Below the pieces are notes generated by a model. The model had not been told where the DNA came from. It made no database searches and worked only from the letters and a program-made list of their open reading frames with translations. A stretch of 64,000 nucleotides of DNA from Lusitaniella coriacea LEGE 07157 (GTDB taxonomy: Bacteria; Cyanobacteriota; Cyanobacteriia; Cyanobacteriales; Spirulinaceae): contig NZ_JADEWZ010000001.1 of NCBI RefSeq assembly GCF_015207425.1, positions 186,001 through 250,000 of the forward strand. The letters are read 5' to 3'. Of the stretch, positions 11,379 through 32,519 are shown piece after piece (positions within the stretch are counted from its first letter, which is position 1; each line of letters begins with the position of its first letter). The position numbers were made by a program, and so were the translations under genes.

Positions 11379-13101
11379 TCACAACCCATTGCCAATCAAA
11401 ATAAAAGCAGCCCAATAATAAGGATGGCTCAACCCCTCCTCCACCTCCGGTTCTATGCCGTCGCGCGATCGCACCGCCACAATTCCCCGCTCCCCTCCCA
11501 CCGCGCTGTAATCCCCCGTAATCAACGCAATCTGCGCCTGACGGAGCGCCTCAGCCTTCGTCATTCCCGACCCTTGCAGCGCTCCGTAAAACCCATTCAT
11601 CAACGCCTGAGTTCCCCCATCATCCACCGACCACAAAGAAGCCATCGCCGCCCTCGCCCCCGCCCGTTGGAACTGGTAGCCCAAACCCAGAATCTCCTCC
11701 CCATTCTCAAACTTCCCTCCCAATCCCGTCTGACACGCAGAAAGAACCACCAAATCCACATTCGTCAGCGACCAATTTTGAATCTCCCGCAGCGTCGCAA
11801 TCTTCCCATCCCCAAACAGAATAAACGAATCCTCCGGCGTGCCGACGACAAATGCCCCGTGGGTTGCCAAATAGCGCCTGAAAATACTGTCCTTGACGCT
11901 CATAAACCAGTCCAATATTATTTAAAACTGTTCCTTCACCTTGACGATTGCCGACTTTTAAATAAATAGCTAAAGCTTGTTGCTGTGATTCCAATGCGCG
12001 ATCGTATTCACCCAATCGACGGTAAACAACACCAATGTTATTGAGAATCGTTACTTCGCTGGAACGATTTCCGATTTCTCTGTGAACTACAAGAGCCTGT
12101 TGAAACGAATCTAGCGCTTGAGGATATTGCTCTAAACGTTCGTAAACTCTTCCTAGATTAGATAATAACCCACTTTCACTCGAACGATCGCCAATGGTTC
12201 GACTTATTTCTAAAGCTTGCTGGAAAGAATTAAGTGCTTGAGAGTACTGACCTAGAGATTCATAGACGCTTCCAAGATTATTGATGGCTATCAGTTTTCC
12301 AGAGAGATTGCCAATTTCTTGCTCAATGGCTAAGGCTTGATTAAAGTACTCTAATGCTCGATCGTAATTGCCTAATTGAGAGTAAACAGAACCGAGGTTA
12401 TTTAGGCTAGTAGCCACACTAGGATCGTTAACTCCTAAAGTTTGTTGGCGAATTGCAAGAGAACGTTGCAAAAGAGGTTCTGCTGCATTAGCATCTCCCA
12501 TACGCAAGTATAGCAATGCTAAGTTATTTAAACTTGCAGCAACATCAGGATGATTGAAACCTAAAACTTGTTCGCGAATTGCAAGAGAACGCTGCAAAAA
12601 TTCAAGGGCTTTGGGGTACTGACTCAGAATTTCATAAATGCTTCCAATACCGTTGAGAATTGTCGCTTCGCCAATATCGTTACCTATTTCTCGATAAACT
12701 ATTAAAGCTTGGTTCAAAAAATCTAATGCTTGAGAGTACTGACCGAGATTAATGTGAACAATCCCAATACTGTTAAGAGTATTTCCTTCGCCTTCGCGAT
12801 TGCGAATTTCTCTGAAAATAATTAAAGCTCGTTCAAATTTCTCCAAGGCTTCTAGATACTGACCTCTGTTAAATAGTTGGACTCCTTCCTGATAAAGTTG
12901 TACCGCTTCAATATGTCTATCGTCTGTTGGTTGTGCCTGTGCCAATTGTTCTGGGGTTGCACCATCTGCGAGAAAACGAAAACCATTTTGTGCCTGCGCG
13001 GAAATTGGGAAGTAGGCAGCAGACAGCAGGAGAGCAAGCGTTAAGCCAGCATTGGGGTTGAGGGAAAGATGCAGAGGTTTCATAGGGAAGCAGAAATGCA
13101 T
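11379..13101 (-). pseudogene. TPR-CHAT gene broken by an internal deletion
   Basis: Read leftward, a signal peptide is followed by about nine TPR units (YLEALEKFERAL, YPQALDSFQQAL and so on), open as 464 codons to 11707. Near 11865-11882 the TPR frame becomes gibberish, while another frame opens with YLATHG, then DSFILFGDG, LSACQTGLG, ARAAMASLWSVDD and HPYYWAAFILIGNG, to a stop at 11379. That second part is the end of a CHAT (caspase-like) domain including the catalytic His (ATHG) and Cys (SACQTG). The linker and first half of CHAT, several hundred residues in intact relatives, are missing and the join is out of frame. The start at 13101 has GAGG 5 nt upstream. A TPR-only secreted protein with a nonsense tail may still be made. 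Confidence 0.8.
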
Positions 13102-13676: not shown

Positions 13677-13740
13677 TGCTTCTGTTAAGCTAGGGCGTAG
13701 TGTCTAGCTCCAATCAAGGTAAAAGAACACAGGATTGAGA

Positions 13741-14088
13741 ATGTCCGATAAACCCATTTTCTGGCTCGGCACTGCCCGAAAAGATTTAGCTAACTTCCCC
13801 GATTTTGTGAAGCGTAAAATGGGTTTTCAATTACGCTCCCTTCAACAAGGTCAACAACCGACAGATTTCAAACCGATTCCCGCAGTTGGACAAGGAGTTG
13901 AAGAAATCCGAGTTCAAGTTGGAGAGGCTTACCGAGTTTTTTACGTTGCAAAATTTTCAGAAGCAATTTACGTCCTCCACGCATTTCAAAAGAAAACCCA
14001 GAAGACTTCTAAAACAGACTTGAAGCTCGGAAAACAACGTTATAACGCCCTACTAGAATTTAGGAGGCAGCAAAAATATGACACCTGA
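13741..14088 (+). CDS. HigB/RelE-type toxin (phage Gp49-like family)
   Basis: 115 residues. The sequence FWLGTARKDLANFPDFVKRKMGFQL, IPAVGQGVEEIRVQVGEAYRVFYVAKF and YVLHAFQKKTQKT is the phage-derived Gp49-like/HigB family of RelE-fold ribosome-dependent mRNases. ATG at 13741 is preferred over TTG at 13735 because AGGA (13731-13734) is correctly spaced. It overlaps the downstream antitoxin gene by 11 bp, the usual toxin-first HigBA order. Confidence 0.85.
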   Translation: MSDKPIFWLGTARKDLANFPDFVKRKMGFQLRSLQQGQQPTDFKPIPAVGQGVEEIRVQVGEAYRVFYVAKFSEAIYVLHAFQKKTQKTSKTDLKLGKQRYNALLEFRRQQKYDT

Positions 14089-14386
14089 CGAATTGATAAC
14101 GATTTCAATCGAATCGGGTAGTGACAACCTTTTTGAGGATATCGGCTTTACCCCGGAAGAAGCAGCAAGCCTCAAAATCAAGTCCGATCTGGCTTTGAAG
14201 TTACGTCAACACCTCGAAGAACAACGATTGGATTCAGATGAGATAACGCAATTTTTCGGTTCAAACGCAATAAAAATTGAAGATATTATCGAAGGCGAAC
14301 TCGATCGGTTCACGATAGAAGAATTGGTTGCTTTGTTGTTGCATATTGGTTTGCAAGTAAAGGTAGAAATTTCCCCCTTAGTCTAG
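14078..14386 (+). CDS. HigA-like helix-turn-helix antitoxin
   Basis: 102 residues. The middle contains a Xre-type helix-turn-helix: LALKLRQHLEEQ, then LDSDEITQFFG, IKIEDIIEGELDRFTIEELVALL. It belongs to the antitoxins that follow Gp49-like toxins. A very strong RBS (AGGAGG, 14062-14067) sits inside the toxin coding sequence, which would favour antitoxin excess. It probably binds its own promoter with the toxin. Confidence 0.82.
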   Translation: MTPDELITISIESGSDNLFEDIGFTPEEAASLKIKSDLALKLRQHLEEQRLDSDEITQFFGSNAIKIEDIIEGELDRFTIEELVALLLHIGLQVKVEISPLV

Positions 14387-14815: not shown

Positions 14816-15061
14816 CTAATCCAGCAATCTCGCTCTTGCTTCGGCAGCAGATACCGTTTGTGTCGCTTCAGCACGGCGATTGAGGAAGTCCATTAACTCT
14901 TCGTTCTGGCGAGTCAATTCAATTTCTCGATCGAAGTCGTCCAGCTCGGCTAGGATAAACTCTAAACCATCCGCCGTCCGCAAAATCAGGTTCTCGTGCT
15001 GGGCTGCTTCTAAAAGGGTCGCGAGCGTTGTTGAATCCTCAGAAACTTGAATAACCTTCAT
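14816..15061 (-). CDS. Phd-like antitoxin
   Basis: 81 residues. N-terminus MKVIQVSEDSTTLATLLEAAQHENLILRTADGLEFILAELDDFDREIE looks like the Phd/YefM DNA-binding fold (strand, helix, two short strands), followed by a charged helical tail that would wrap the toxin. It is the second gene of a leftward pair; its ATG overlaps the toxin TGA (ATGA, 15058-15061). The order toxin-antitoxin is reversed relative to classical Phd/Doc, but is common with RelE/ParE partners in cyanobacteria. Confidence 0.75.
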   Translation of the reverse strand: MKVIQVSEDSTTLATLLEAAQHENLILRTADGLEFILAELDDFDREIELTRQNEELMDFLNRRAEATQTVSAAEARARLLD

Positions 15062-15366
15062 AACTCAAACTCTTTCCCCCGAATCAATAGCGTGTTGTGC
15101 TGTTTAAAGCCTACCGCCTCGATTTTAACAATATTAACGCTCTCGGTATTCGCGCCCTTAAGAACGTCATAAAACACGCGATATTTTCCGACTCGTAATT
15201 CCCATTCTGCCAGTTGATTGGGGCGAAGACGTTTGCGGTTCTTGGTTTCAACAGTTGGCTCGTAAAGTAGTTGGCGATCGACTGCATCAAGGATCTGCCG
15301 ACGCTCGGATTTCCGAAAATGCTCTAAATCTAAAAGAGCTTCTTCTGTGTATTCAATGAAATACAT
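15058..15366 (-). CDS. RelE/ParE-type toxin
   Basis: 102 residues. MYFIEYTEEALLDLEHFRKSERRQILDAVDRQL is the paired helical hairpin of the RelE/ParE superfamily, followed by the sheet block NQLAEWELRVGKYRVFYDVL and a final IVKIEAVGFKQHNTL strand. It is either an mRNA interferase or a gyrase poison; I cannot tell which. It is the first gene of the pair and is probably autoregulated with the antitoxin at 14816. Confidence 0.82.
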   Translation of the reverse strand: MYFIEYTEEALLDLEHFRKSERRQILDAVDRQLLYEPTVETKNRKRLRPNQLAEWELRVGKYRVFYDVLKGANTESVNIVKIEAVGFKQHNTLLIRGKEFEL

Positions 15367-16950: not shown

Positions 16951-18924
16951 ATGTTAAAAGTCGGTTCAAATGCTGCCGCACCAGAACGGTTATTGAATAA
17001 ACGCTATCACGTTATTGCCGTTCTCAGTAGTGTCGGTTTGGGGAAAACTTACACGGCAGTTGATACCTATCGGCCGGGACAACCGAAATGTGTTATCAAG
17101 TGTCTTACGCCGGTCAGTCGCGATCGCGATTGTCTGCAAGTGGTGAGACATTTGTTCGATCGCGAGGCTCAAATTTTAGCAGCTTTGGAAGATTGCGATC
17201 GCGTGCCTCAATTATTCGATCGCGTCGAGATCGATCGAACCTTTTATTTAATTCAAGAATTTATTGAAGGACAATCCCTCAACGAAATTTTCCACCTCAG
17301 CCGTCCTTGGAACGAACCTCAAACTGTCGCATTTCTTCAGGATATTTTAGGGATTTTAGCCTTCGCGCACCCTAAAGGAATTATTCATAGCGATTTGCGA
17401 CCGGATAAGCTCATTCTCCGTCAAAAAGATGCAAAATGGGTCTTAACCGGATTCAATGTCCTCAATCAAGAACGGAGTCAATGGGCAAATCTCCCCAACC
17501 AAATCAGCGCGAGTATTGCTTTGGGAACTTTGGGTTATATGCCTGTCGAACAGTTACGCGGCAAACCTTTACCGAGTAGCGATATCTATTCTCTCGGAAT
17601 GATGGGGATACAAGCCTTAACGGGGTTAAATCCGGTGGAATTGGAGGAAGATCCCCGAACGGGTGAAGTTCTCTGGCAACATCAGGCGAATGTTAGCGAT
17701 GAATTAGCGGCAATTTTATCAAAAATGGTCTGCTACCACATTCGCGATCGTTACAGCGATGTACAGGAAGTATTGGAAGCCCTGCAAGCCTTACCCATTG
17801 TCGATTCAGAACCCATCGATCGGCTACCGCAAGAAGCGCCAGTTTCTTCCCTCGCTGTGGTTCCGCCTCCCCCCGAACCGCAAGCCGGATGGTATTTGTC
17901 TAGTTTGAGAGCGGCGAGTTTGGTGACGTTTATCTCTGCAATTGCGGGAGCGAGCGGTTTCTTTTTCCTGCGATCGCCTGAATTATTAAGCCAGATCGAG
18001 CAATGGTTTGATTTTGGTCGCGATCCCCTTGCTCAAGCGAAGGGCAAGTATCAAGATGGGGAATTGGAAGCCGCGATCGCGCTGGCACGATCCATTGCAC
18101 CTGAAAGTCCTGTCTATTCTGACGCTCAGTCCGCGATCGCGCAATGGCAAAAAGATTGGAAAAATGCTCAAACCACCGTTGAAGCAGCGACTCAAGCTTT
18201 TCAGAAAGGTCAGTGGCAAACCGTTCTCCAAAAAGCAGAGCAAATCCCCGATATTAAATATTGGCAGGAAAAAGTTGCCACCCTTGTCGAACGCGCCACA
18301 ATCAACCTCGATCGGCAAGCACAACAGACTTTAGAAGAAGCTTACAGCCAAGCGAGGGATAAAAACTTTACCCGCGCCTTAGACACCCTCAAGGAGATTC
18401 CCCCCAAAACCGCAACCCACGCCAAAGCCAAAGAAAAGATCGCTGAATATCGCACAAAACAGAGCATTAGAGCCAATTATTTTCTCCAGCAAGCCTACAA
18501 TCGAGCCGTTGAAAGGGATTTTACCGAAGCTTTGGATTTTCTCGCCAAAATCCCCCCCCAAACGCCCGCTTACGCCACTGCACAAGGTAAAGTTGCTGAA
18601 TACAAGCGCAAACAGAATATTAAAGCCAACCATCTCCTGCAACGCGCCTACAATCGCGCGATCGTCCGAGACTTTAACGGAGCCTTGCGTCATTTACAAC
18701 AAATCCCGGAAAATACAATTGCCTATGCCAAAGCTCAGGAAAAGATTGCGGAATATTCATCCGTACAAGGTCGTTCCATCACACCTCAACCCCAACCTTT
18801 TAAGTCAGATCCTTTCATTCGTTCCCAAAAATCCCAGCAACCGGAAGCGATTCCCACTAGCACCCTTCCCCTTCCTCCCAATCTCAATCCCGGAAACCAA
18901 CTCTACGAAATTAACACGCCTTAA
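16951..18924 (+). CDS. Membrane-anchored kinase-fold protein, probable pseudokinase
   Basis: 657 residues: kinase fold (about 15-285), Pro-rich linker, one transmembrane helix (about 324-342), then three ~47-residue repeats of the type AYNRAxxRDFxxALxxLxxIPxxTxAYAKAQ (about 460-600) and a Pro-rich tail. The Gly-rich loop (VGLGKTYTAV) and the VIK lysine are kept, but HRDLKPEN reads HSDLRPDK (His146-Ser-Asp148) and the DFG motif is replaced by T-G-F at 166-168. Without the metal-binding Asn and Asp, phosphotransfer is unlikely. ATG 16951 is chosen over the TTG at 16933 because GGGGGA lies 9 nt upstream. It is directly followed by an intact kinase gene. Confidence 0.8.
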   Translation: MLKVGSNAAAPERLLNKRYHVIAVLSSVGLGKTYTAVDTYRPGQPKCVIKCLTPVSRDRDCLQVVRHLFDREAQILAALEDCDRVPQLFDRVEIDRTFYLIQEFIEGQSLNEIFHLSRPWNEPQTVAFLQDILGILAFAHPKGIIHSDLRPDKLILRQKDAKWVLTGFNVLNQERSQWANLPNQISASIALGTLGYMPVEQLRGKPLPSSDIYSLGMMGIQALTGLNPVELEEDPRTGEVLWQHQANVSDELAAILSKMVCYHIRDRYSDVQEVLEALQALPIVDSEPIDRLPQEAPVSSLAVVPPPPEPQAGWYLSSLRAASLVTFISAIAGASGFFFLRSPELLSQIEQWFDFGRDPLAQAKGKYQDGELEAAIALARSIAPESPVYSDAQSAIAQWQKDWKNAQTTVEAATQAFQKGQWQTVLQKAEQIPDIKYWQEKVATLVERATINLDRQAQQTLEEAYSQARDKNFTRALDTLKEIPPKTATHAKAKEKIAEYRTKQSIRANYFLQQAYNRAVERDFTEALDFLAKIPPQTPAYATAQGKVAEYKRKQNIKANHLLQRAYNRAIVRDFNGALRHLQQIPENTIAYAKAQEKIAEYSSVQGRSITPQPQPFKSDPFIRSQKSQQPEAIPTSTLPLPPNLNPGNQLYEINTP

Positions 18925-19006
18925 GGTTGTAGAAACGTGCGAATTTTAGGGAATGGAGGAGATTGCAATTGAAGTAATCGCAAGACGCAACCCAGGGGAT
19001 ACGCAA

Positions 19007-20434
19007 ATGATCGGTCAATGCTTGCGCGATCGCTACCAGATTGAATCGCTTCTCAGTCGCCAAAGAGGACGCAGAACCTTTCTCGCGAGGGATTTAGACG
19101 CGCAATCTCCCGTTGTCATTAAATTGCTCCTTTTCGATCCGGATTTTGTTTGGGACGATCTCAAGCTGTTTGAACGAGAAGCAGAAACCCTTAAATCTCT
19201 CAATCACCCTTCTATTCCGAAGTATCTCGATAGCTTTGATGTGGCGTTGGAATGGGGGAAAGGGTTTGCCTTCGTGCAAAATTATATCGACGCGCGATCG
19301 CTTCAGGATTGGGTGCAGTCGGGACGGAGGTTTAGCGAAGACGAACTGAAAATGATGGCTAAGGAACTCCTCGAAATTCTCGACTATCTCCATACGCGCC
19401 AACCCCCGGTCATTCATCGAGATATTAAGCCCAGTAATATTTTATTGCGCGATCGCAGTGGCAACAATCCCGGCGAACTCCATCTCGTTGATTTTGGTTC
19501 GGTACAAACCGCCATACATAGCGGAACCGTTACCATTGTTGGAACCTACGGCTATATGCCTCCCGAACAATTTGGCGGACGAACCGTCCCCGCATCCGAT
19601 CTCTACAGTCTGGGTGCAACCTTAATCTATCTATCCACAGGACAGCATCCCGCCGATCTCCCTCAAAAAGATTCTCACCTTCAATTTGAGCGATTGGTGC
19701 AACTGAGTCCCACTTTTAAAAAATGGTTGAGCCAAAGCATCAAACCCAGTTTAGAAAAGCGTTTTAAATCAGCAAAAACAGCACTCCAAGCCTTAAACAA
19801 TCCCGAACGCACCGATATACTCCCTTCACTCAAACAGCGACCTGCCTGGAGTCGTATTGGGTTTATAAAGAATGAAGAAGAATTGAAAATAACGTTCCCA
19901 AGATATCTCAATAGAAGAAAAACAAGCTGGGACAGACAAGAATCAGAAATAGGATGTGGAGGCTGTCTATCAATTATTGCATCGTTATTTATTCTTTTTA
20001 TTGGATCGCTATTTATTCTTTTTCTTCTTTCAATATTCTTTGCCTTTTATCCAATTACAGTATGCAGTATTTTTGTAATTCTGTTGTCTGTCCTAATTAT
20101 TACGTTTAATTTAGCGACAGAATATTATCTCAACCGCGAAATTCTTGTTATCAAAACGAAATTGTTCGGTCAAACAATCAGCAAGGGTCATCCAATACCA
20201 CGAGAAGCCATTTGTAAGCTAGAAGTCACAAAACCGTACTTTAAAGAAATTTTTATCGGTGGCACTCCTTCCTTCATTAATCCTCAAATTATTCTTTGGA
20301 CAGGAATAAACCCAACTCCGATTGTACTAAAAGGCGCGCAAGGACCCGAAATCGATTGGCTCGCCGCAGAACTCAGCAATTGGCTAGGAATCCCCATTCA
20401 ATATCAAGAAATCCCCATTATTAAATCTCTATAA
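19007..20434 (+). CDS. Serine/threonine protein kinase, membrane-bound
   Basis: 475 residues. The Hanks-type kinase domain (about 1-270) has VIK lysine, HRDIKPSN (His137-Arg-Asp139), DFG (162-164), the APE-like PPEQFGG and the D-x-YSLGAT block, so it should be active. Two or three close-packed hydrophobic helices follow (about 319-367), then a ~100-residue C-terminal domain of mixed strands. ATG 19007 is favoured over 18953 because AGGGG sits 9 nt upstream and the protein then starts MIGQCLRDRYQI, as usual for cyanobacterial kinases. It likely shares a transcript with the upstream pseudokinase gene (82 bp gap). Confidence 0.88.
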   Translation: MIGQCLRDRYQIESLLSRQRGRRTFLARDLDAQSPVVIKLLLFDPDFVWDDLKLFEREAETLKSLNHPSIPKYLDSFDVALEWGKGFAFVQNYIDARSLQDWVQSGRRFSEDELKMMAKELLEILDYLHTRQPPVIHRDIKPSNILLRDRSGNNPGELHLVDFGSVQTAIHSGTVTIVGTYGYMPPEQFGGRTVPASDLYSLGATLIYLSTGQHPADLPQKDSHLQFERLVQLSPTFKKWLSQSIKPSLEKRFKSAKTALQALNNPERTDILPSLKQRPAWSRIGFIKNEEELKITFPRYLNRRKTSWDRQESEIGCGGCLSIIASLFILFIGSLFILFLLSIFFAFYPITVCSIFVILLSVLIITFNLATEYYLNREILVIKTKLFGQTISKGHPIPREAICKLEVTKPYFKEIFIGGTPSFINPQIILWTGINPTPIVLKGAQGPEIDWLAAELSNWLGIPIQYQEIPIIKSL

Positions 20435-20490: not shown

Positions 20491-20916
20491 TTATACCTCT
20501 GCTGGGGGCAAACTCGTCTCAAGCTTAAGACAATTGCGACCATTCACCTGTAAGCGATACTCTACGCGATCCATCAATCGATTCATAATTAACCAACCAT
20601 ATCCCCCTTCCTTCTTCTCATCGGGTTTAGGAGGCAAATAGGTGGAGAGGTCAAACCCATTACCATGATCCCAGATTTCTAATGCAAGATCGCGATCGTC
20701 TAACTCTAAACGCAGAAGAACCGGAATGTGGGGCTGTTCTTTGTGGGCGTGGCGAACGACATTGGAATAAGCTTCAACCAAAGCCAATCGCAGACGACTG
20801 GACTGGCGAGGCCAATCCACAGAATCGCCCAACTCAATCTCCAGACAGTCTAGCAGCCAGCATTCGACAACAGCTAAGAATTTCAAATCGCTTGGGATGT
20901 GTAGTTCTGTTTTCAT
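20491..20916 (-). CDS. RsbW-like anti-sigma factor / serine kinase
   Basis: 141 residues. HATPase_c_2 fold: the N-box VEAYSNVVRHAH and the G1-box LEIWDHGNGFD are clear, with GGYGWLIMNRLMDRVEY near the end. Such proteins bind a sigma factor and phosphorylate a STAS-domain antagonist on serine. The gene lies 3 bp after the SpoIIE-phosphatase gene in the same direction, forming two of the three parts of a partner-switch. No STAS gene or sigma factor is adjacent. Confidence 0.85.
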   Translation of the reverse strand: MKTELHIPSDLKFLAVVECWLLDCLEIELGDSVDWPRQSSRLRLALVEAYSNVVRHAHKEQPHIPVLLRLELDDRDLALEIWDHGNGFDLSTYLPPKPDEKKEGGYGWLIMNRLMDRVEYRLQVNGRNCLKLETSLPPAEV

Positions 20917-20919
20917 TAA

Positions 20920-22593
20920 CTACAGAACCTCCAGAGATAGCATAGTTTGGTCATCTTCTTGAATTTGGTTCGTATATTCGCGAAAGCGCTCTAAAAGGGC
21001 AGTGAGATCGAAAGATTGAGTGTCCTGCAAAATAAGATGCCAGAGTCCTTCTTGATTGAGAAAGGAACTGCTATCGGGAGAGGGCGGCCCTCCTGAATTA
21101 ATATCCTTTACCACAGTAGCTTCTGTAATCCCATCACTTGTTACAAGCAATATATCACCTTGTTCTAAAACCATTTCTCCTGCCTTAGCTTTCCAAACGG
21201 GCAAAATTCCAACAGGAACGCCTCGAACTTTCAAGTAATCGGGTTCTTCTTCTGGGCTGGCTTGGTGATTCCAAACCATTGGATAAATATGACCTGCATT
21301 CGCATAAACCAGTTTATAGGTTGTGGGAGTATAACGAGCAATGACCATTGTAATGAAGCAATTCGTACCGAATAAATCCTCATTCATCGTCTGATTTAAA
21401 TTTCGCATCACCACATCGGGTTCCGGGGAAATTTCTTGAGATAATTCTCGTCGAAGAATAGAAATCGCACTCGCCATAAACAAAGCCGCCGGAACGCCTT
21501 TACCCGAAACATCGCCAACTGCTAACCAAACATCACCTTGGGGGTGAACGTACACTTCAAAAAAGTCGCCACCCACCTCCCGCGCGGGATAGCAGCTTGC
21601 TTGCACTTTTGCCCCTTCAACCTCACCCCAGCTTTGTCGCAGCAAATTATGCTGAATTTGCCGAGCAACCTCCAACTCCGCTCGCATTTTCTGGGCTTGT
21701 TGCTGAGTGCGTTGATACAGTTTAGCCTGAGAGAGGGCAAGTGCTGCTTGTTCGGCGACCGACTCCAACAATTTAATATCAGAATCCGTCCAATTTCCCG
21801 AACGAGTCAGGCGAGCGAGGTATAAAACGGCTAGGGGTTGCTGCTGAACGGTTAAGGGAATCGCCAATTCCATCCAACTGCGCTCCTTGATATCTCCTTC
21901 AGTGGTTTGTGTTTGATGGGTTTCTAGGACTTTTTCAATGGCAACAGTTGCATCGGGAAAACTATCGCCAATCTCTTCTATAACATCCTCCGCCTTATAA
22001 GAGAAAGATTCAGGCATTGCAGGAGCGCTTTCAATCGGATGTAAAATACTTCGGCTTGCCCCAAAATTTTGCCCAATTGTCCTCACAATGGTTTGGAGCA
22101 TTTTTTCGTAGTCAAGCGCCTCCTCGCGAATTGCAGCCATTACTAGGTTTAGGGCTTCTTCTCGCCGTAAAGCGCGGCGTAGCTCGTTGGTTCTTTGTTT
22201 GAGAACTTTATAGGTTTCGGAAGCTTGTTGAACGACGGCTTTTAAATTTTCTGGATTCCACGGTTTAGTGATGTATTTAAAAACTTTACCGGAGTTAATA
22301 GCATCAACTAAATCTTCAACATCTGTGTATCCAGTTAAAAGAATGCGAATGGTTTCGGGAAAGCGTTCGACGGTTTTTCCGAGGAACTCCGTGCCGTTCA
22401 TGACAGGCATCCGTTGGTCGGAAATAATCACTGCCATTTCCCCTTCCTTATCCAAAACTTCCAATGCGCTCACTGCACTTTCTGCTTTAAAAACGCGGAA
22501 ATCTCTACGAAAGGTACGGTAAAGTAAATCGAGGTTGTCAGGTTCGTCGTCTACCACCATTAATTTCAATTTCTTGCTACTTGCCTGACTCAT
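20920..22593 (-). CDS. Response regulator with GAF and SpoIIE phosphatase domains
   Basis: 557 residues. Domains in order: receiver (about 8-130; acidic VVDDE, phospho-acceptor Asp in VIISDQRMP, Lys in KYITKPW); GAF-like sensor (about 160-295); coiled coil (about 295-320, YQRTQQQAQKMRAELEVARQIQ); and PP2C/SpoIIE phosphatase (about 325-557; GGDFFE and GDVSGKG metal sites). Phosphorylation or ligand would switch the phosphatase, which dephosphorylates a STAS antagonist controlled by the anti-sigma kinase encoded next. Similar proteins are annotated IcfG/RsbU-like in cyanobacteria. Confidence 0.9.
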   Translation of the reverse strand: MSQASSKKLKLMVVDDEPDNLDLLYRTFRRDFRVFKAESAVSALEVLDKEGEMAVIISDQRMPVMNGTEFLGKTVERFPETIRILLTGYTDVEDLVDAINSGKVFKYITKPWNPENLKAVVQQASETYKVLKQRTNELRRALRREEALNLVMAAIREEALDYEKMLQTIVRTIGQNFGASRSILHPIESAPAMPESFSYKAEDVIEEIGDSFPDATVAIEKVLETHQTQTTEGDIKERSWMELAIPLTVQQQPLAVLYLARLTRSGNWTDSDIKLLESVAEQAALALSQAKLYQRTQQQAQKMRAELEVARQIQHNLLRQSWGEVEGAKVQASCYPAREVGGDFFEVYVHPQGDVWLAVGDVSGKGVPAALFMASAISILRRELSQEISPEPDVVMRNLNQTMNEDLFGTNCFITMVIARYTPTTYKLVYANAGHIYPMVWNHQASPEEEPDYLKVRGVPVGILPVWKAKAGEMVLEQGDILLVTSDGITEATVVKDINSGGPPSPDSSSFLNQEGLWHLILQDTQSFDLTALLERFREYTNQIQEDDQTMLSLEVL

Positions 22594-28271: not shown

Positions 28272-31200
28272 ATGAGCGATCGCCCAGAATCTCAGAACCC
28301 CAAACAACGTGTCCTTGAAAATGTCACTGTTGGGCGAAATCTCACGACAGGCGATATTCATCAAACGCAAAATATTACGAACATTTTTCAGGACCCAACA
28401 CCTCTACCCGAAACTGTCCTTGAGTGGCTGAAGCAGAACTTTGAGCGGTCAAGGAATAGCTGGTTGAGCAATCGCTACTCCCCCGATCTTCATCAAACTG
28501 GTCAAATAGAAGCGGATCTACAGTTGCGCTTGAATGGTCCGTCTTTTCAGTCGAAGTGGCTCGACGAGGTAAGGCAGATTCGTGTCCAACTCGAAGATGT
28601 CCACTTGGCAGTCTTGCGTCTGAGACGATACCCGCAGTTTGTGCAGCGGGATGATGCCGAGGATCTCATTAGAAAGGCCGGAGAATGGATAGTAGCCGCA
28701 ATCTCTGAGCAACAAGAATTAGCAAAGCGCATTTCACAGGGGAACTCTTTCCCTCTTCCTGATTTTGAAAAGGAAGTCACTGGTGAAGCTGCCCCTTGGT
28801 CACTTATCAACATCATTTTGTCAGGCGAAAAGCAATTTCCAGAATCACCAACTGCGGATATTGGAAAGCAACTGGAGATTACCCTAAACAGTTGGCTTGC
28901 CCGGAAAGTTACACCAAGACACTTGAGAACGTTAGGACAGCCCGCTGCCTATGTCGGTGAACCTGGAGTCGGGAAAACACACGCCCTTGCTCATACAATT
29001 CACAATCGGCTTGCCGACGGTAAGCCTGCAATTTTAATCCGTGCTAAAGAGATTGATTTAGCAAAAAGTTGGGATGTTATCTTGGCTGAAGCGATCGGGA
29101 TGCCCGGATCGAATATCCACCAAGTTCTGGATGCACTAGAAGCTACTGCTACTCAAGTTGAGACATCGAATACATCAGATGGTCTAAATAACTCACAATT
29201 TCAATCTATTCGTACTCTAATTGCAATTGACGGTCTTGATGAAACCCCTAGAGCAGAGCGTTGGACAGACAAACTAGGGGAATTAATCTCTCTTGCCAAG
29301 CAATACCCTAAAATCCTTTTTGTTTGTTCCTTGCGTACTAACCTTTTCCGCCGCATAACTCTTCCAGGTGGAATTAATCCAGTTCACTTGAGTGGGTCAG
29401 ATGCAACTCTCGGTGAGATTTTTGAATCTTATTGCAAGGTTAACCGAATTGAATGTCCTCCCATTTTGCGCTGGGCATTGTCAACCCCACTTACAATTCG
29501 ACTCTTTGCTGACTTGTACCAGGGGCAGCAGATTAACACTGTTACCCTTCAAGAGTTCTCACTGGTGAGCCTGATTAACCGGAAGATTGATTATGCCGAG
29601 CGTGCCATTCGAGAAAACGACCCAGAGGGTTGGAGCGAAAACATTACCCCAGTTCGCGATACTTTGCGTGCAATCGTCAAAGCCTGTCTATCTCAAGCAG
29701 AACTTTTGCAGGCAGAAGCCTTGCAAGTTATTGACAATGCTCAAAGAACACCTGGTATTTTGTCTCACCAACAGTTATCGAACATCCTCGACAAATGTCT
29801 GGATCACGGGCTTTTATTGCTTAGAAAACAACCTTCAGAAGATCCATTTGAGGGCGATCTCCTTTTCTGGGAACCTGCCTATGAAACTGTAACGGACTTT
29901 CTACTTGCTTGGGAAGCCTGTAACGAGGCAGCAACGAACCTAAGTAATCCAGAAATGCCAGCATATTTACGGTATCGAGGCAACGCGATTGCGCTTGCTG
30001 CCTATCTCTTGGGTATGAAGGGCTATGACCTTTTTACTACAGAGTTATGGTCAAACAGCTTGAGTCTTAAAGAACGAGAAGCACTACACCTGACGACTAT
30101 TTTGATGATGCCTCCCGAAAAAGGGGAGAATTACCGAGCCTGGGTCATCGAAATTTTCAAGAGAAATATGCCCAGTTGCCGAAAAGTTCTGGATAGGCTG
30201 GTGATTCCCGGACTTAGAATACCTGGCTATCTGTATGGCGCTCAGTTCGTTCATGAGGTTCTACTCCCAATGCAGGTGGCAGAACGCGATTTGTTCTGGT
30301 CGGGTCCCGATTATATCCGACATAATCATGACGCACCTTGGGAAGGCCTTGGCAAAGCAGTACTAGACGAACTGGAAATAGCCGATGACGATACTTGGAA
30401 TACGGCTCCGTTGCTGTTAGCTTGGGGAATGACAACAGTCAAAAATGACAGCCGCAGAAAGATGCGAGGCAAGCTCGCGGTATGGGGCAGTCAAAATCCT
30501 GATGGACTATTTGCCCTCCTTAAAGAAGCTTGTCAAACCAACGATCCACAGATGAAGGAGGATATTCTCTCTGCTACTTATGGGGCTTCATGTTTAACTC
30601 GGCCGGACGAGAAATGGCTTCCACTCTGCAACTGGATAATCGATAACTTTTGTACATCCCATTCACCGCTTTACAGCCACAACATAGTTATTCGGCATAG
30701 CGCTCAGAGTTTTATTGAGCGGTGCGCTGCCTGTAATGTCGCTGTCGATGAAGATTGTTTAACGAATATTCGTAGTCCTGATGTCAATTCTGATGAACTA
30801 CTTCCTATCGATAGGCAAGTAGCAATCGATGCAGATGAGTATTGGAGGATTGGACTGATCAATTGGGATTTATCTCGATATGTCATCTCTAGGGCAACCC
30901 AGCCTTTTTTCTATGAGGAAAGATTTTCAAGAATTCAGAAAAGCAGTAGTCAGTCAAAGGATAAAGAGGATCGAGATGAGTTTGAGGATATCGATGAAAG
31001 TTTGCTTATACAATTTGCTGAAGGTTCTTTGCGAAAATCCGCTAATCTTGATGCTAGGAACCGTGTAAGTGAAATTCTCCGTGCAAGAGCAGAACTACAA
31101 GCGATGGTTGAAACTTTTTATTCTGCGACAGAAGAAGAGCAACAAAAGCTATTAATTGAGTGGGGAATTTCCGATCAGGAGATAGAAGAAGGCGATCGGA

Positions 31201-32519
31201 AAGTAGTTTCCGACACTCAGCAAGAGTCAGAATATTCAAAATCAGCTCAAAATCTTTTGGCAAAACACGCAGCAGCAAATAATCTTTCCAGCTTGAAGCC
31301 AAATCAGTTTGCAGTAGGCTTTATTACTGCATATGCAACACAACTTGGCTGGTCTAGAGAAATTTTCATTAAAGAACCTAAAGGCGAAGAACCCGGTGAA
31401 ATCCTCGGCGCAGACATTGCTGTTTTAAGAGAGTATCCGCAAGCAACTCATGGATCTCGTAGTTCTACCGCAACATTTGGTGAGAAATATGTTTGGGTTG
31501 CAAAAAATGAGTTAATTGGGTTTCTTGCAAGTCGTATTCCAGCATATGACTGGAATAAATACTTTGAACCTCCTGTCGATCTAAGTCTATTTACTACAGT
31601 AGAGAACCCGGCATCAGATCTTAGTTATGGTCAATTAACACTAAATCAAGTACTAGAATTTCCAGAACTTGTCCCTGACGCTGAATTATCTGAATTCGAT
31701 CAGGTTGAGCGAGCCAATGAGTGGGTTCAAAAAGCACCTCTGCCCGATATTCCCCCCTTACTGCTCCAGCACTCGGATCGACTTCCTGGCTGGGCTAGAG
31801 ATGATGAATGGCTTGTTCTGCGCTCGTTCGCCATTAGACGTAATTCGGATAGTCAAGCAGAATCAGTATTACGCACATCAAGTTTTCTACTTCCATCAAA
31901 GGCTTTGCCCTTAATAGAAGAGGATATCCAGTTTGGAGTACTGCCTGATGTATACGCTCCATACGAATTTTCTTCAGGAGTTGCTTCAGTCGAAGTTTAT
32001 CGCGATCCCTGTGAAGTTGTCTGGGCACCCTGGATTCAAGAAATTGAGGGAGTAGTTAGCCACAAAACTTTAGATGAGTTCGGTAATCCCCTAAGAATAG
32101 AACTTCAGGCAACAACTTGTCAGTTTCATTGGAAAGCTCCAGATGGAGAACAGGAAGAATCGGTGCCTGCAAAAACTCTTCGAGAACTACTTGAGATTGT
32201 TGATTTTCGAGGAGGCAAGTTTCTGACAGCTAATGGGCAAGTTCAAGCGTTTACCTTTGATAGTCCAGGAGAACGTTGGCATACATCATCTTGTCAAATG
32301 GTATTAATTCGTCGTGCCGCGATCTTGGAAGCTATCTCAAGCCAAGGTTTGAGCATTGGTTGGGGCATCTGGTTAAATCGTGAACCAGCTTACCCACTTA
32401 TTGCCATTTCAGGCAAAAAAAGAATGTTCAGAAATTGGCACGCAATTGCACTTTGGAGTAACGACACCTTCAATATCATTCCCTACAAGGATGAAATTGA
32501 GCCCTGGTACAAGGATTAA
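28272..32519 (+). CDS. Large NACHT/STAND-type NTPase, candidate NLR-like sensor
   Basis: 1415 residues. Order: N-terminal motif VTVGRNLTTGDIHQ (18-31); ~190 residues of helical linker; P-loop NTPase with Walker A GEPGVGKT (229-236), Walker B LIAIDGLDE (316-324, the DGLDE type of NACHT NTPases) and a basic sensor block LFVCSLRTNLFRR; then about 1000 residues of mixed helices without recognisable repeats, including TFGEKYVWVAKNELIGFLASR at about 1066-1086. Cytoplasmic, no membrane segment. It is probably a signal-sensing ATPase that oligomerises; the long C-terminus would be the sensor. Only one HIP1 octamer occurs in the gene, at its very start. Specific function is inference. Confidence 0.7.
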   Translation: MSDRPESQNPKQRVLENVTVGRNLTTGDIHQTQNITNIFQDPTPLPETVLEWLKQNFERSRNSWLSNRYSPDLHQTGQIEADLQLRLNGPSFQSKWLDEVRQIRVQLEDVHLAVLRLRRYPQFVQRDDAEDLIRKAGEWIVAAISEQQELAKRISQGNSFPLPDFEKEVTGEAAPWSLINIILSGEKQFPESPTADIGKQLEITLNSWLARKVTPRHLRTLGQPAAYVGEPGVGKTHALAHTIHNRLADGKPAILIRAKEIDLAKSWDVILAEAIGMPGSNIHQVLDALEATATQVETSNTSDGLNNSQFQSIRTLIAIDGLDETPRAERWTDKLGELISLAKQYPKILFVCSLRTNLFRRITLPGGINPVHLSGSDATLGEIFESYCKVNRIECPPILRWALSTPLTIRLFADLYQGQQINTVTLQEFSLVSLINRKIDYAERAIRENDPEGWSENITPVRDTLRAIVKACLSQAELLQAEALQVIDNAQRTPGILSHQQLSNILDKCLDHGLLLLRKQPSEDPFEGDLLFWEPAYETVTDFLLAWEACNEAATNLSNPEMPAYLRYRGNAIALAAYLLGMKGYDLFTTELWSNSLSLKEREALHLTTILMMPPEKGENYRAWVIEIFKRNMPSCRKVLDRLVIPGLRIPGYLYGAQFVHEVLLPMQVAERDLFWSGPDYIRHNHDAPWEGLGKAVLDELEIADDDTWNTAPLLLAWGMTTVKNDSRRKMRGKLAVWGSQNPDGLFALLKEACQTNDPQMKEDILSATYGASCLTRPDEKWLPLCNWIIDNFCTSHSPLYSHNIVIRHSAQSFIERCAACNVAVDEDCLTNIRSPDVNSDELLPIDRQVAIDADEYWRIGLINWDLSRYVISRATQPFFYEERFSRIQKSSSQSKDKEDRDEFEDIDESLLIQFAEGSLRKSANLDARNRVSEILRARAELQAMVETFYSATEEEQQKLLIEWGISDQEIEEGDRKVVSDTQQESEYSKSAQNLLAKHAAANNLSSLKPNQFAVGFITAYATQLGWSREIFIKEPKGEEPGEILGADIAVLREYPQATHGSRSSTATFGEKYVWVAKNELIGFLASRIPAYDWNKYFEPPVDLSLFTTVENPASDLSYGQLTLNQVLEFPELVPDAELSEFDQVERANEWVQKAPLPDIPPLLLQHSDRLPGWARDDEWLVLRSFAIRRNSDSQAESVLRTSSFLLPSKALPLIEEDIQFGVLPDVYAPYEFSSGVASVEVYRDPCEVVWAPWIQEIEGVVSHKTLDEFGNPLRIELQATTCQFHWKAPDGEQEESVPAKTLRELLEIVDFRGGKFLTANGQVQAFTFDSPGERWHTSSCQMVLIRRAAILEAISSQGLSIGWGIWLNREPAYPLIAISGKKRMFRNWHAIALWSNDTFNIIPYKDEIEPWYKD

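What the first reader, a model, noticed from the sequence alone, without database searches (positions are those of the whole stretch)
16951..20434. Pseudokinase followed by active kinase, both membrane-bound
The first protein keeps the ATP-loop and VIK lysine but has HSDLRPDK in place of HRDLKPEN and T-G-F in place of DFG, with a transmembrane helix and three ~47-residue repeats outside or at the C-terminus. The second has all catalytic motifs and its own transmembrane helices. An inactive receptor may regulate or scaffold the active one, comparable to pseudokinase partners in eukaryotes.
Basis: partly seen in the sequence, partly recalled or inferred. Interest (0 to 1): 0.58.

Follow-up and report, generated by a model that had tools for sequence, protein, structure and literature searches.

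The report
Dead receptor kinase kept by selection
This cyanobacterial gene encodes a membrane protein whose kinase part has lost residues needed for catalysis yet, in its relatives, is still preserved by selection, so it probably works as a sensor or scaffold; the active kinase gene beside it is not a conserved partner.

Summary
P0001 (16951-18924) has a kinase fold (PknB, Z 26.5) with both Mg-ligand positions changed (HSDLRPDK; DFG is GFN) and two glycine-loop glycines lost; beta3 Lys, alphaC Glu and HxD Asp remain. It has one weak transmembrane segment and three 51-residue TPR-like repeats. P0002 (18953-20434) is a kinase with intact K/HRD/DFG. Adjacency is not conserved (0 of 10 other pseudokinase loci; 0 of 29 P0002 homologues). 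P0001 belongs to a cyanobacterial kinase-TM-repeat family and, within it, to a 12-member clade in which every member lost the Lys or a catalytic Asp, by several routes. Dead domains of relatives evolve under purifying selection (dN/dS 0.13-0.16) like live ones (0.12-0.13), apart from a noisy close group. All 12 genomes carry a second family member, but in 5 it too is dead or lacks a kinase domain. Best reading: a non-catalytic receptor or scaffold descended from a receptor kinase; ligand and partner unknown. Bacterial pseudokinases are a known kind; I did not find this clade described in what I read.

The parts
16951..18924 (+). pseudokinase gene P0001, 657 aa: kinase-like domain, one weak TM segment, TPR-like repeats, conserved tail
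16996..17799 (+). kinase-like domain (about residues 16-283); fold matches PknB
   Evidence: Pfam; PknB 5u94 Z 26.5, rmsd 2.7, 243 residues aligned
17023..17052 (+). degraded glycine loop LSSVGLGKTY (third Gly only)
   Evidence: alignment; position
17098..17100 (+). retained beta3 lysine K50
17386..17409 (+). catalytic loop HSDLRPDK: Asp148 kept, Asn replaced by Lys153
17449..17457 (+). GFN in place of DFG
17914..17970 (+). single hydrophobic segment, residues 322-340
   Evidence: KD mean 1.86; weak
18325..18783 (+). three 51-residue TPR-like repeats (18325-18477, 18478-18630, 18631-18783)
18883..18921 (+). C-terminal tail LNPGNQLYEINTP, matching the family tail LxPGxxLQE(I/V)N
18953..20434 (+). 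adjacent kinase gene P0002, 493 aa (probable start at 19007): K57, HRD, DFG intact; about two TM helices
19415..19438 (+). P0002 catalytic loop HRDIKPSN
19490..19498 (+). P0002 DFG

Best explanation
P0001 is a catalytically degraded paralogue of a cyanobacterial single-pass receptor Ser/Thr kinase (N-terminal kinase domain, one TM segment, C-terminal TPR-like solenoid with a conserved tail). Its clade gave up phosphotransfer but kept the folded kinase domain. Most likely it works without catalysis: the C-terminal repeats (outside the cytoplasm if the protein is single-pass, inferred) bind a ligand or partner, and the cytoplasmic kinase fold, perhaps still able to hold a nucleotide through K50 and E72, acts as a docking or conformational module for other proteins. 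SHOWN by sequence: architecture, clade, residue losses, intact reading frames, purifying selection on dead domains of relatives, no conserved neighbour. INFERRED: topology, loss of kinase activity, scaffold or sensor role. UNKNOWN: ligand, partner. The active kinase next door is most likely an incidental or lineage-specific neighbour.
For: Full-length family with a C-terminal profile found in 146 of 388 genomes of the order. 12-row clade with SH-aLRT 100 on the C-terminal domain and 98.8 on the kinase domain with motif columns removed. 12 of 12 clade rows lack K, HxD-Asp or DFG-Asp: K to R (4 rows), HxD Asp to Ala (3), to Asn (1), K to Q plus Asp to Asn plus DFG-Asp to Gly (2), HCH (1), window DFG-Asp to Gly plus Asn to Lys (1); the DFG Gly is Ser or Asn in all 12. 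dN/dS of the kinase domain: 0.152, 0.152, 0.157 and 0.128 in four dead pairs against 0.121 and 0.125 in two intact pairs. Elsewhere in the family the kinase domain is gone: G215, G173, G246 and G257 keep only TM plus repeats. AF2 keeps the kinase fold.
Against: No experiment. The window protein keeps K50, E72 and D148, so weak or Mg-independent activity is possible. Missing motifs do not prove inactivity: SpkE of Synechocystis lacks the Asp and was first reported inactive (PMC2176072, passages), later active (PMC11863333, passages). The dN/dS test uses relatives, not the window gene, which has no close sequence; six dead pairs of one close group (g46) give noisy 0.28-0.64 with dS under 0.07. 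The TM segment is weak (1.86), and a simple hydropathy cut of 1.5 found none in 31 of 79 family rows.
Confidence: 0.6

Rival explanations
1. One reading: P0001 and P0002 are an operon pair in which the dead receptor activates, inhibits or scaffolds the live kinase (STRAD-LKB1-like).
For: Same strand, 28 bp apart (82 bp from the likelier start), no forward promoter-like site in the gap.
Against: Adjacency absent in 10 of 10 other clade loci examined and beside 29 of 29 P0002 homologues. P0002's family is common (192 of 243 genomes at E 1e-40), sometimes in tandem with its own kind, and occurs without P0001's clade.
Confidence: 0.12
2. P0001 regulates the catalytically intact paralogue of its own family in the same genome (G000 contig C7, HCD plus DFG) by heterodimerising through the shared architecture.
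For: 12 of 12 clade genomes carry a second family member; 7 of these 12 keep K/D/D, including the window genome's.
Against: In 5 of 12 genomes the second member is itself dead (2 HGN) or has no kinase domain (3), so no live family partner was found there.
Confidence: 0.18
3. P0001 is an unconventional kinase like CASK, active without Mg: it lost both Mg-ligand positions but keeps Lys, alphaC Glu and HxD Asp.
For: K50, E72, D148 kept; DFG to GFN and Asn to Lys. CASK (GFG) phosphorylates without Mg (passages in PMC2686265 and PMC2639636); that CASK also lacks the Asn is recalled, not read here.
Against: CASK has an intact glycine loop, P0001 does not, and PMC2639636 treats that as informative; but only 53.3% of cyanobacterial kinases have an exact GXGXXG (PMC2176072, passage). 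All sister proteins lost other essentials, as expected if catalysis was already dispensable.
Confidence: 0.1
4. A decaying, functionless gene copy.
For: Long branch (0.42 and 0.58); several motifs lost.
Against: Open over 657 codons with fold, repeats and tail intact; dead relatives under purifying selection; the clade persists in 12 genomes.
Confidence: 0.05

Closest known systems
EssB/YukC, membrane pseudokinase of type VIIb secretion
   Same: Membrane protein with a cytoplasmic kinase fold and degraded motifs, non-catalytic scaffold (PMC12599244, section 4 read)
   Different: All three motifs and activation loop degraded, fixed in a secretion system; P0001 keeps Lys and HxD Asp, has TPR-like repeats, and I noticed no secretion genes nearby
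CP1 bacterial (pseudo)kinases
   Same: Cyanobacterial; about 40% degraded, by varied motif losses (PMC12599244, section 10)
   Different: CP1 lack TM regions and their pseudokinases are fused to COG3899; P0001 has a TM segment and no such domain was seen
SpkE (Slr1443) of Synechocystis
   Same: Cyanobacterial Hanks-type kinase lacking the HxD Asp (PMC2176072, passages)
   Different: Activity disputed: none at first, later detected (PMC11863333, passages); P0001 keeps that Asp. Sequence not compared here
PknB/Stk1-type receptor kinases
   Same: N-terminal kinase, one TM, C-terminal repeats outside (recalled); best structural match to P0001's kinase domain
   Different: PASTA ectodomain and intact catalysis; P0001 scores 92 bits against the PknB_PASTA model, cut-off 450
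STRAD and CASK of animals
   Same: Kinase folds without normal Mg binding that still bind ATP (PMC2686265, passages)
   Different: Not homologous receptors; an analogy of mechanism only

Membership tests
bacterial Ser/Thr pseudokinases (one or more of beta3 Lys, HRD Asp, DFG Asp missing) | protein-kinase fold | tested here: met
   Pfam Pkinase 74.7 bits; PknB Z 26.5
bacterial Ser/Thr pseudokinases (one or more of beta3 Lys, HRD Asp, DFG Asp missing) | at least one of the three residues missing | tested here: met
   DFG Asp is Gly167
bacterial Ser/Thr pseudokinases (one or more of beta3 Lys, HRD Asp, DFG Asp missing) | no phosphotransfer | not testable with these tools
   needs an assay
CP1 family | no transmembrane region | tested here: inconclusive
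   one weak TM segment, KD mean 1.86
CP1 family | fused to a COG3899 ATPase domain | tested here: inconclusive
   657 aa with only a kinase and a repeat match over cut-off, but COG3899 itself is not in the libraries searched
PASTA kinases (PknB/Stk1) | score over NF033483 cut-off, PASTA repeats | tested here: not met
   92.1 against 450 bits; no PASTA match
PD-T4-6 defence kinases | catalytically active defence kinase with PADLOC model match | tested here: inconclusive
   best model E 6.3e-81 over the kinase domain, but P0002 matches the same models; no cut-off given; catalytic residues lost
conserved pseudokinase-kinase operon | adjacency kept in related genomes | tested here: not met
   0 of 10, 0 of 29
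TPR repeat proteins | 34-residue TPR units and superhelix | tested here: inconclusive
   51-residue period, long helix of about 32 plus short one of 9; local matches of about 50 residues at 1.3-2.5 A to TPR proteins, no good global one; ARM_TT21 51.2 bits over cut-off 27

The most novel reading that the evidence does not exclude
In this cyanobacterial receptor family the constant functional unit is the TM plus extracytoplasmic repeat module, not the kinase. Catalysis has been switched off repeatedly: by different residues within one paralogous clade, again in the other paralogue lineage (HGN, GFS), and by outright deletion of the kinase domain in relatives, while dead kinase domains that remain are held by selection as strong as live ones. 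That would make it a natural series for how a bacterial receptor kinase turns into a pure sensor or scaffold.
Probability: 0.45. Interest if true: 0.6.

Novelty: new member of a known kind. Interest (0 to 1): 0.42.

Why it matters
Bacterial pseudokinases are largely unstudied, and functions are known for few. Here a single family offers live, dead by several routes, and kinase-less versions, often two in one genome, with measurable selection on the dead domain. That makes the question 'what is a dead kinase domain for in a bacterial receptor?' directly testable by swapping versions in a tractable cyanobacterium.

Tried and rejected
Conserved operon: rejected. In one search some loci do have a kinase neighbour, but in other orientations: divergent in L072 and L021 (both of the pseudokinase clade), tail-to-tail in L083, L085 and L090, and same-strand 1.9 kb downstream in L075.

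Synteny of the window's flanking genes in its family, to ask whether the pair is an insertion: the two flanking genes lie on different contigs or far apart in the relatives listed; uninformative.

Lateral origin of P0001: the window genome's other copy (C7) groups with its own family f1, P0001 with a clade otherwise seen only in family f15; GC3 of P0001 (0.447) is ordinary for the window. Transfer or differential loss cannot be told apart.

Root of the clade: the kinase tree puts it beside the outgroup rows, the C-terminal tree inside the family; so whether it branched first or later is open.

Full-length P0001 fold search returned only kinase-domain matches, so the repeats were folded alone. 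Their matches are local TPR ones; the best Z is 10.1 with rmsd 15.1, not a global match. Known families absent from the fold lists are not thereby excluded.

Paper searches. No description of this clade was seen in what was listed or read; the 42-family atlas itself (reference 72 of PMC12599244) was not read.
Full report
THE LOCUS. The window lies in a 5.86 Mb draft genome. All 20 named relatives of P0001 returned are cyanobacteria. Two co-directional genes follow each other: P0001, 657 aa (16951-18924), and P0002, 493 aa (18953-20434; homologues align only from about residue 15-24, so the start is probably Met19 at 19007). Both match Pkinase. P0001 is one of several degraded kinases of this genome: of 59 kinase domains (61 aligned stretches, two domains split in two) in a census built on the Pfam matches, seven lack the HxD or DFG Asp: P0001, L203, L219, L221, L222, L229 and L231 (read by eye from an HMM alignment; stretches without the N-lobe could not be judged for Lys).

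WHAT IS MISSING IN P0001. Against family members with LGAGVFGQTY, VVK, HCDIKPEN and IDFG, P0001 has LSSVGLGKTY, VIK, HSDLRPDK and TGFN. So K50, E72 and D148 remain, while the Asn of the catalytic loop is Lys153, the DFG Asp is Gly167 and the DFG Gly is Asn169. Both Mg-ligand positions are gone. AlphaFold2 (13 sequences, mean pLDDT 78.5) still gives a kinase fold, closest to M. tuberculosis PknB (5u94, Z 26.5, rmsd 2.7, 243 aligned). The C-terminal part, folded alone from two sequences, is an all-helical solenoid (mean pLDDT 92.7) of about 32-residue and 9-residue helices with a 51-residue period, TPR-like locally.

FAMILY. A profile of the C-terminal part (A1, 16 rows) finds the family in 146 of 388 genomes of the order and, in a phylum-wide sample, in 37 of 292, only one of them (partial) outside the order. 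Members share kinase, a hydrophobic segment, repeats and often a tail LxPGxxLQE(I/V)N. I fetched only part of the matches: the best 30, plus regions picked by hand to cover genomes with two copies and distant families. After removing duplicates and one cut copy of the window locus, 78 rows with a kinase domain (including 4 outgroup-like rows with weak repeat matches) and 4 rows without one were analysed.

THE CLADE. Twelve rows, one per genome, form one clade with SH-aLRT 100 on the C-terminal domain and 98.8 on the kinase domain after removing the motif columns (quick trees, no bootstrap). Eleven genomes are of one family, f15 (one of them is Coleofasciculus sp. S288, since L173 of G266 and L021 carry the identical ORF); the twelfth is the window's genome, of family f1. 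No other of the 13 f1 genomes searched showed a second full-length member. All 12 lack the beta3 Lys, the HxD Asp or the DFG Asp, but not the same one: K to R in four; Asp to Ala in three; Asp to Asn in one; K to Q, Asp to Asn and DFG-Asp to Gly in two; HCH with the loop Asn changed to His in one; in the window DFG-Asp to Gly and Asn to Lys. The DFG Gly is Ser in 11 and Asn in the window. In all, 15 of 78 rows lack one of the three; the tree needs at least 3 changes for that label. The other three are L046 and the pair L160/L161, in the other paralogue lineage.

SECOND COPIES. All 12 genomes carry another family member. It keeps K/D/D in 7 (four HRD; HCD in the window genome, contig C7; HGD with DFG in G266, whose N-lobe start is cut; HGD with DFS in G241), is HGN in 2 (G230, G101) and has no kinase domain in 3 (G215, G173, G246). 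A fourth kinase-less copy is in G257, on another branch. In these four the TM-plus-repeat ORF stands alone, and tblastn with four family proteins finds no family kinase domain attached to it; L163 has a separate, convergent kinase gene nearby, and L175 a piece of one at its contig start. L198 (G163) looks frameshifted and was not counted. So the dead clade cannot everywhere be a regulator of a live family partner.

SELECTION. Nei-Gojobori dN/dS on the kinase domain: dead clade pairs 0.152, 0.152, 0.157 (three genomes, Asp to Ala) and 0.128 (two genomes, triple loss); the HGN pair L160/L161 0.193; intact pairs 0.121 and 0.125. In the close group g46 all values are noisy (dead copies 0.277-0.641, intact copies 0.361-0.724, dS at most 0.128). 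I read this as: dead domains are conserved about as strictly as live ones where divergence suffices. The window gene itself could not be tested, as no close relative was found.

NEIGHBOURS. For 10 of the other 11 clade loci (G241 not included), no gene family recurs beside the gene except within closely related species and a few shared genes in pairs or trios at some kb, and none has a same-strand kinase downstream (held downstream flank about 1.7 to 7.5 kb). Across 21 wider-family loci one has a same-strand kinase downstream, 1.9 kb away; others have divergent or tail-to-tail kinases. From the other side, 29 distinct P0002 homologues with at most about 1.5 kb flanks (one also with 7 kb) have no P0001-type gene; five stand in tandem with their own kind. 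P0002's family is found in 192 of 243 genomes at E 1e-40. The pair in the window may be co-transcribed but is not a conserved system.

MECHANISM. Best supported is a non-catalytic receptor or scaffold. Steps shown: fold (predicted), losses, clade, selection, absence of a conserved partner gene. Steps inferred: cytoplasmic kinase fold and outside repeats (single weak TM; positive residues before it in family members), no phosphotransfer, docking role by analogy with EssB/YukC (PMC12599244, sections 4, 10, 12 and 14 read). The window protein, alone in its clade, keeps Lys, alphaC Glu and HxD Asp while losing both Mg ligands, so a CASK-like Mg-independent activity stays open; against it, its glycine loop is degraded, whereas CASK's is intact (PMC2639636, passages). 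Caution on naming it dead comes from SpkE: lacking the Asp and first reported inactive (PMC2176072, passages), later reported active (PMC11863333, passages).

NOVELTY. Bacterial pseudokinase families are described, seven of them named in PMC12599244. From the sections read (CP1, DYD; passages for GLW, DLHK and ActPs) none fits well: CP1 pseudokinases are fused to COG3899 and lack TM; DYD is actinobacterial and firmicute; DLHK lacks TM; GLW is mainly proteobacterial. The ActPs sections were not read beyond passages. So this is filed as a new member of a known kind, with an unusually complete series of live, dead and kinase-less relatives.

Noticed in passing
L162:6705-7724, L163:6540-7418, L175:6036-6983, L178:6364-7353: Family members reduced to TM plus repeats, with the kinase domain gone; three also share the genome with a dead kinase copy.
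   Followed up: yes
L203, L219, L221, L222, L229, L231 (window genome): Six further kinases of this genome lack the HxD or DFG Asp; pseudokinases are routine here.
   Followed up: partly
window 20494-22593, - strand: HATPase_c_2 protein next to a receiver-GAF-SpoIIE phosphatase (Rsb-like partner-switching pair), convergent with the kinase pair; the phosphatase is found in 13 of 13 genomes of the family.
   Followed up: partly
window 11382-13101, - strand: TPR protein and CHAT domain in overlapping different frames: looks like a frameshifted TPR-CHAT gene.
   Followed up: no
window 28272-32516: 1415-aa protein matching Avs2 defence models (E 4.7e-47) with no Pfam match at 0.001; a small divergent gene lies just upstream.
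   Followed up: partly
window 13735-14383 and 14819-15366: Two toxin-antitoxin-like pairs: Gp49 with HTH_37, and ParE-like with a small partner.
   Followed up: no
L083, L085, L090: In three loci of family f33 a second kinase of about 705-710 aa lies tail-to-tail within about 130 bp of the family member.
   Followed up: no
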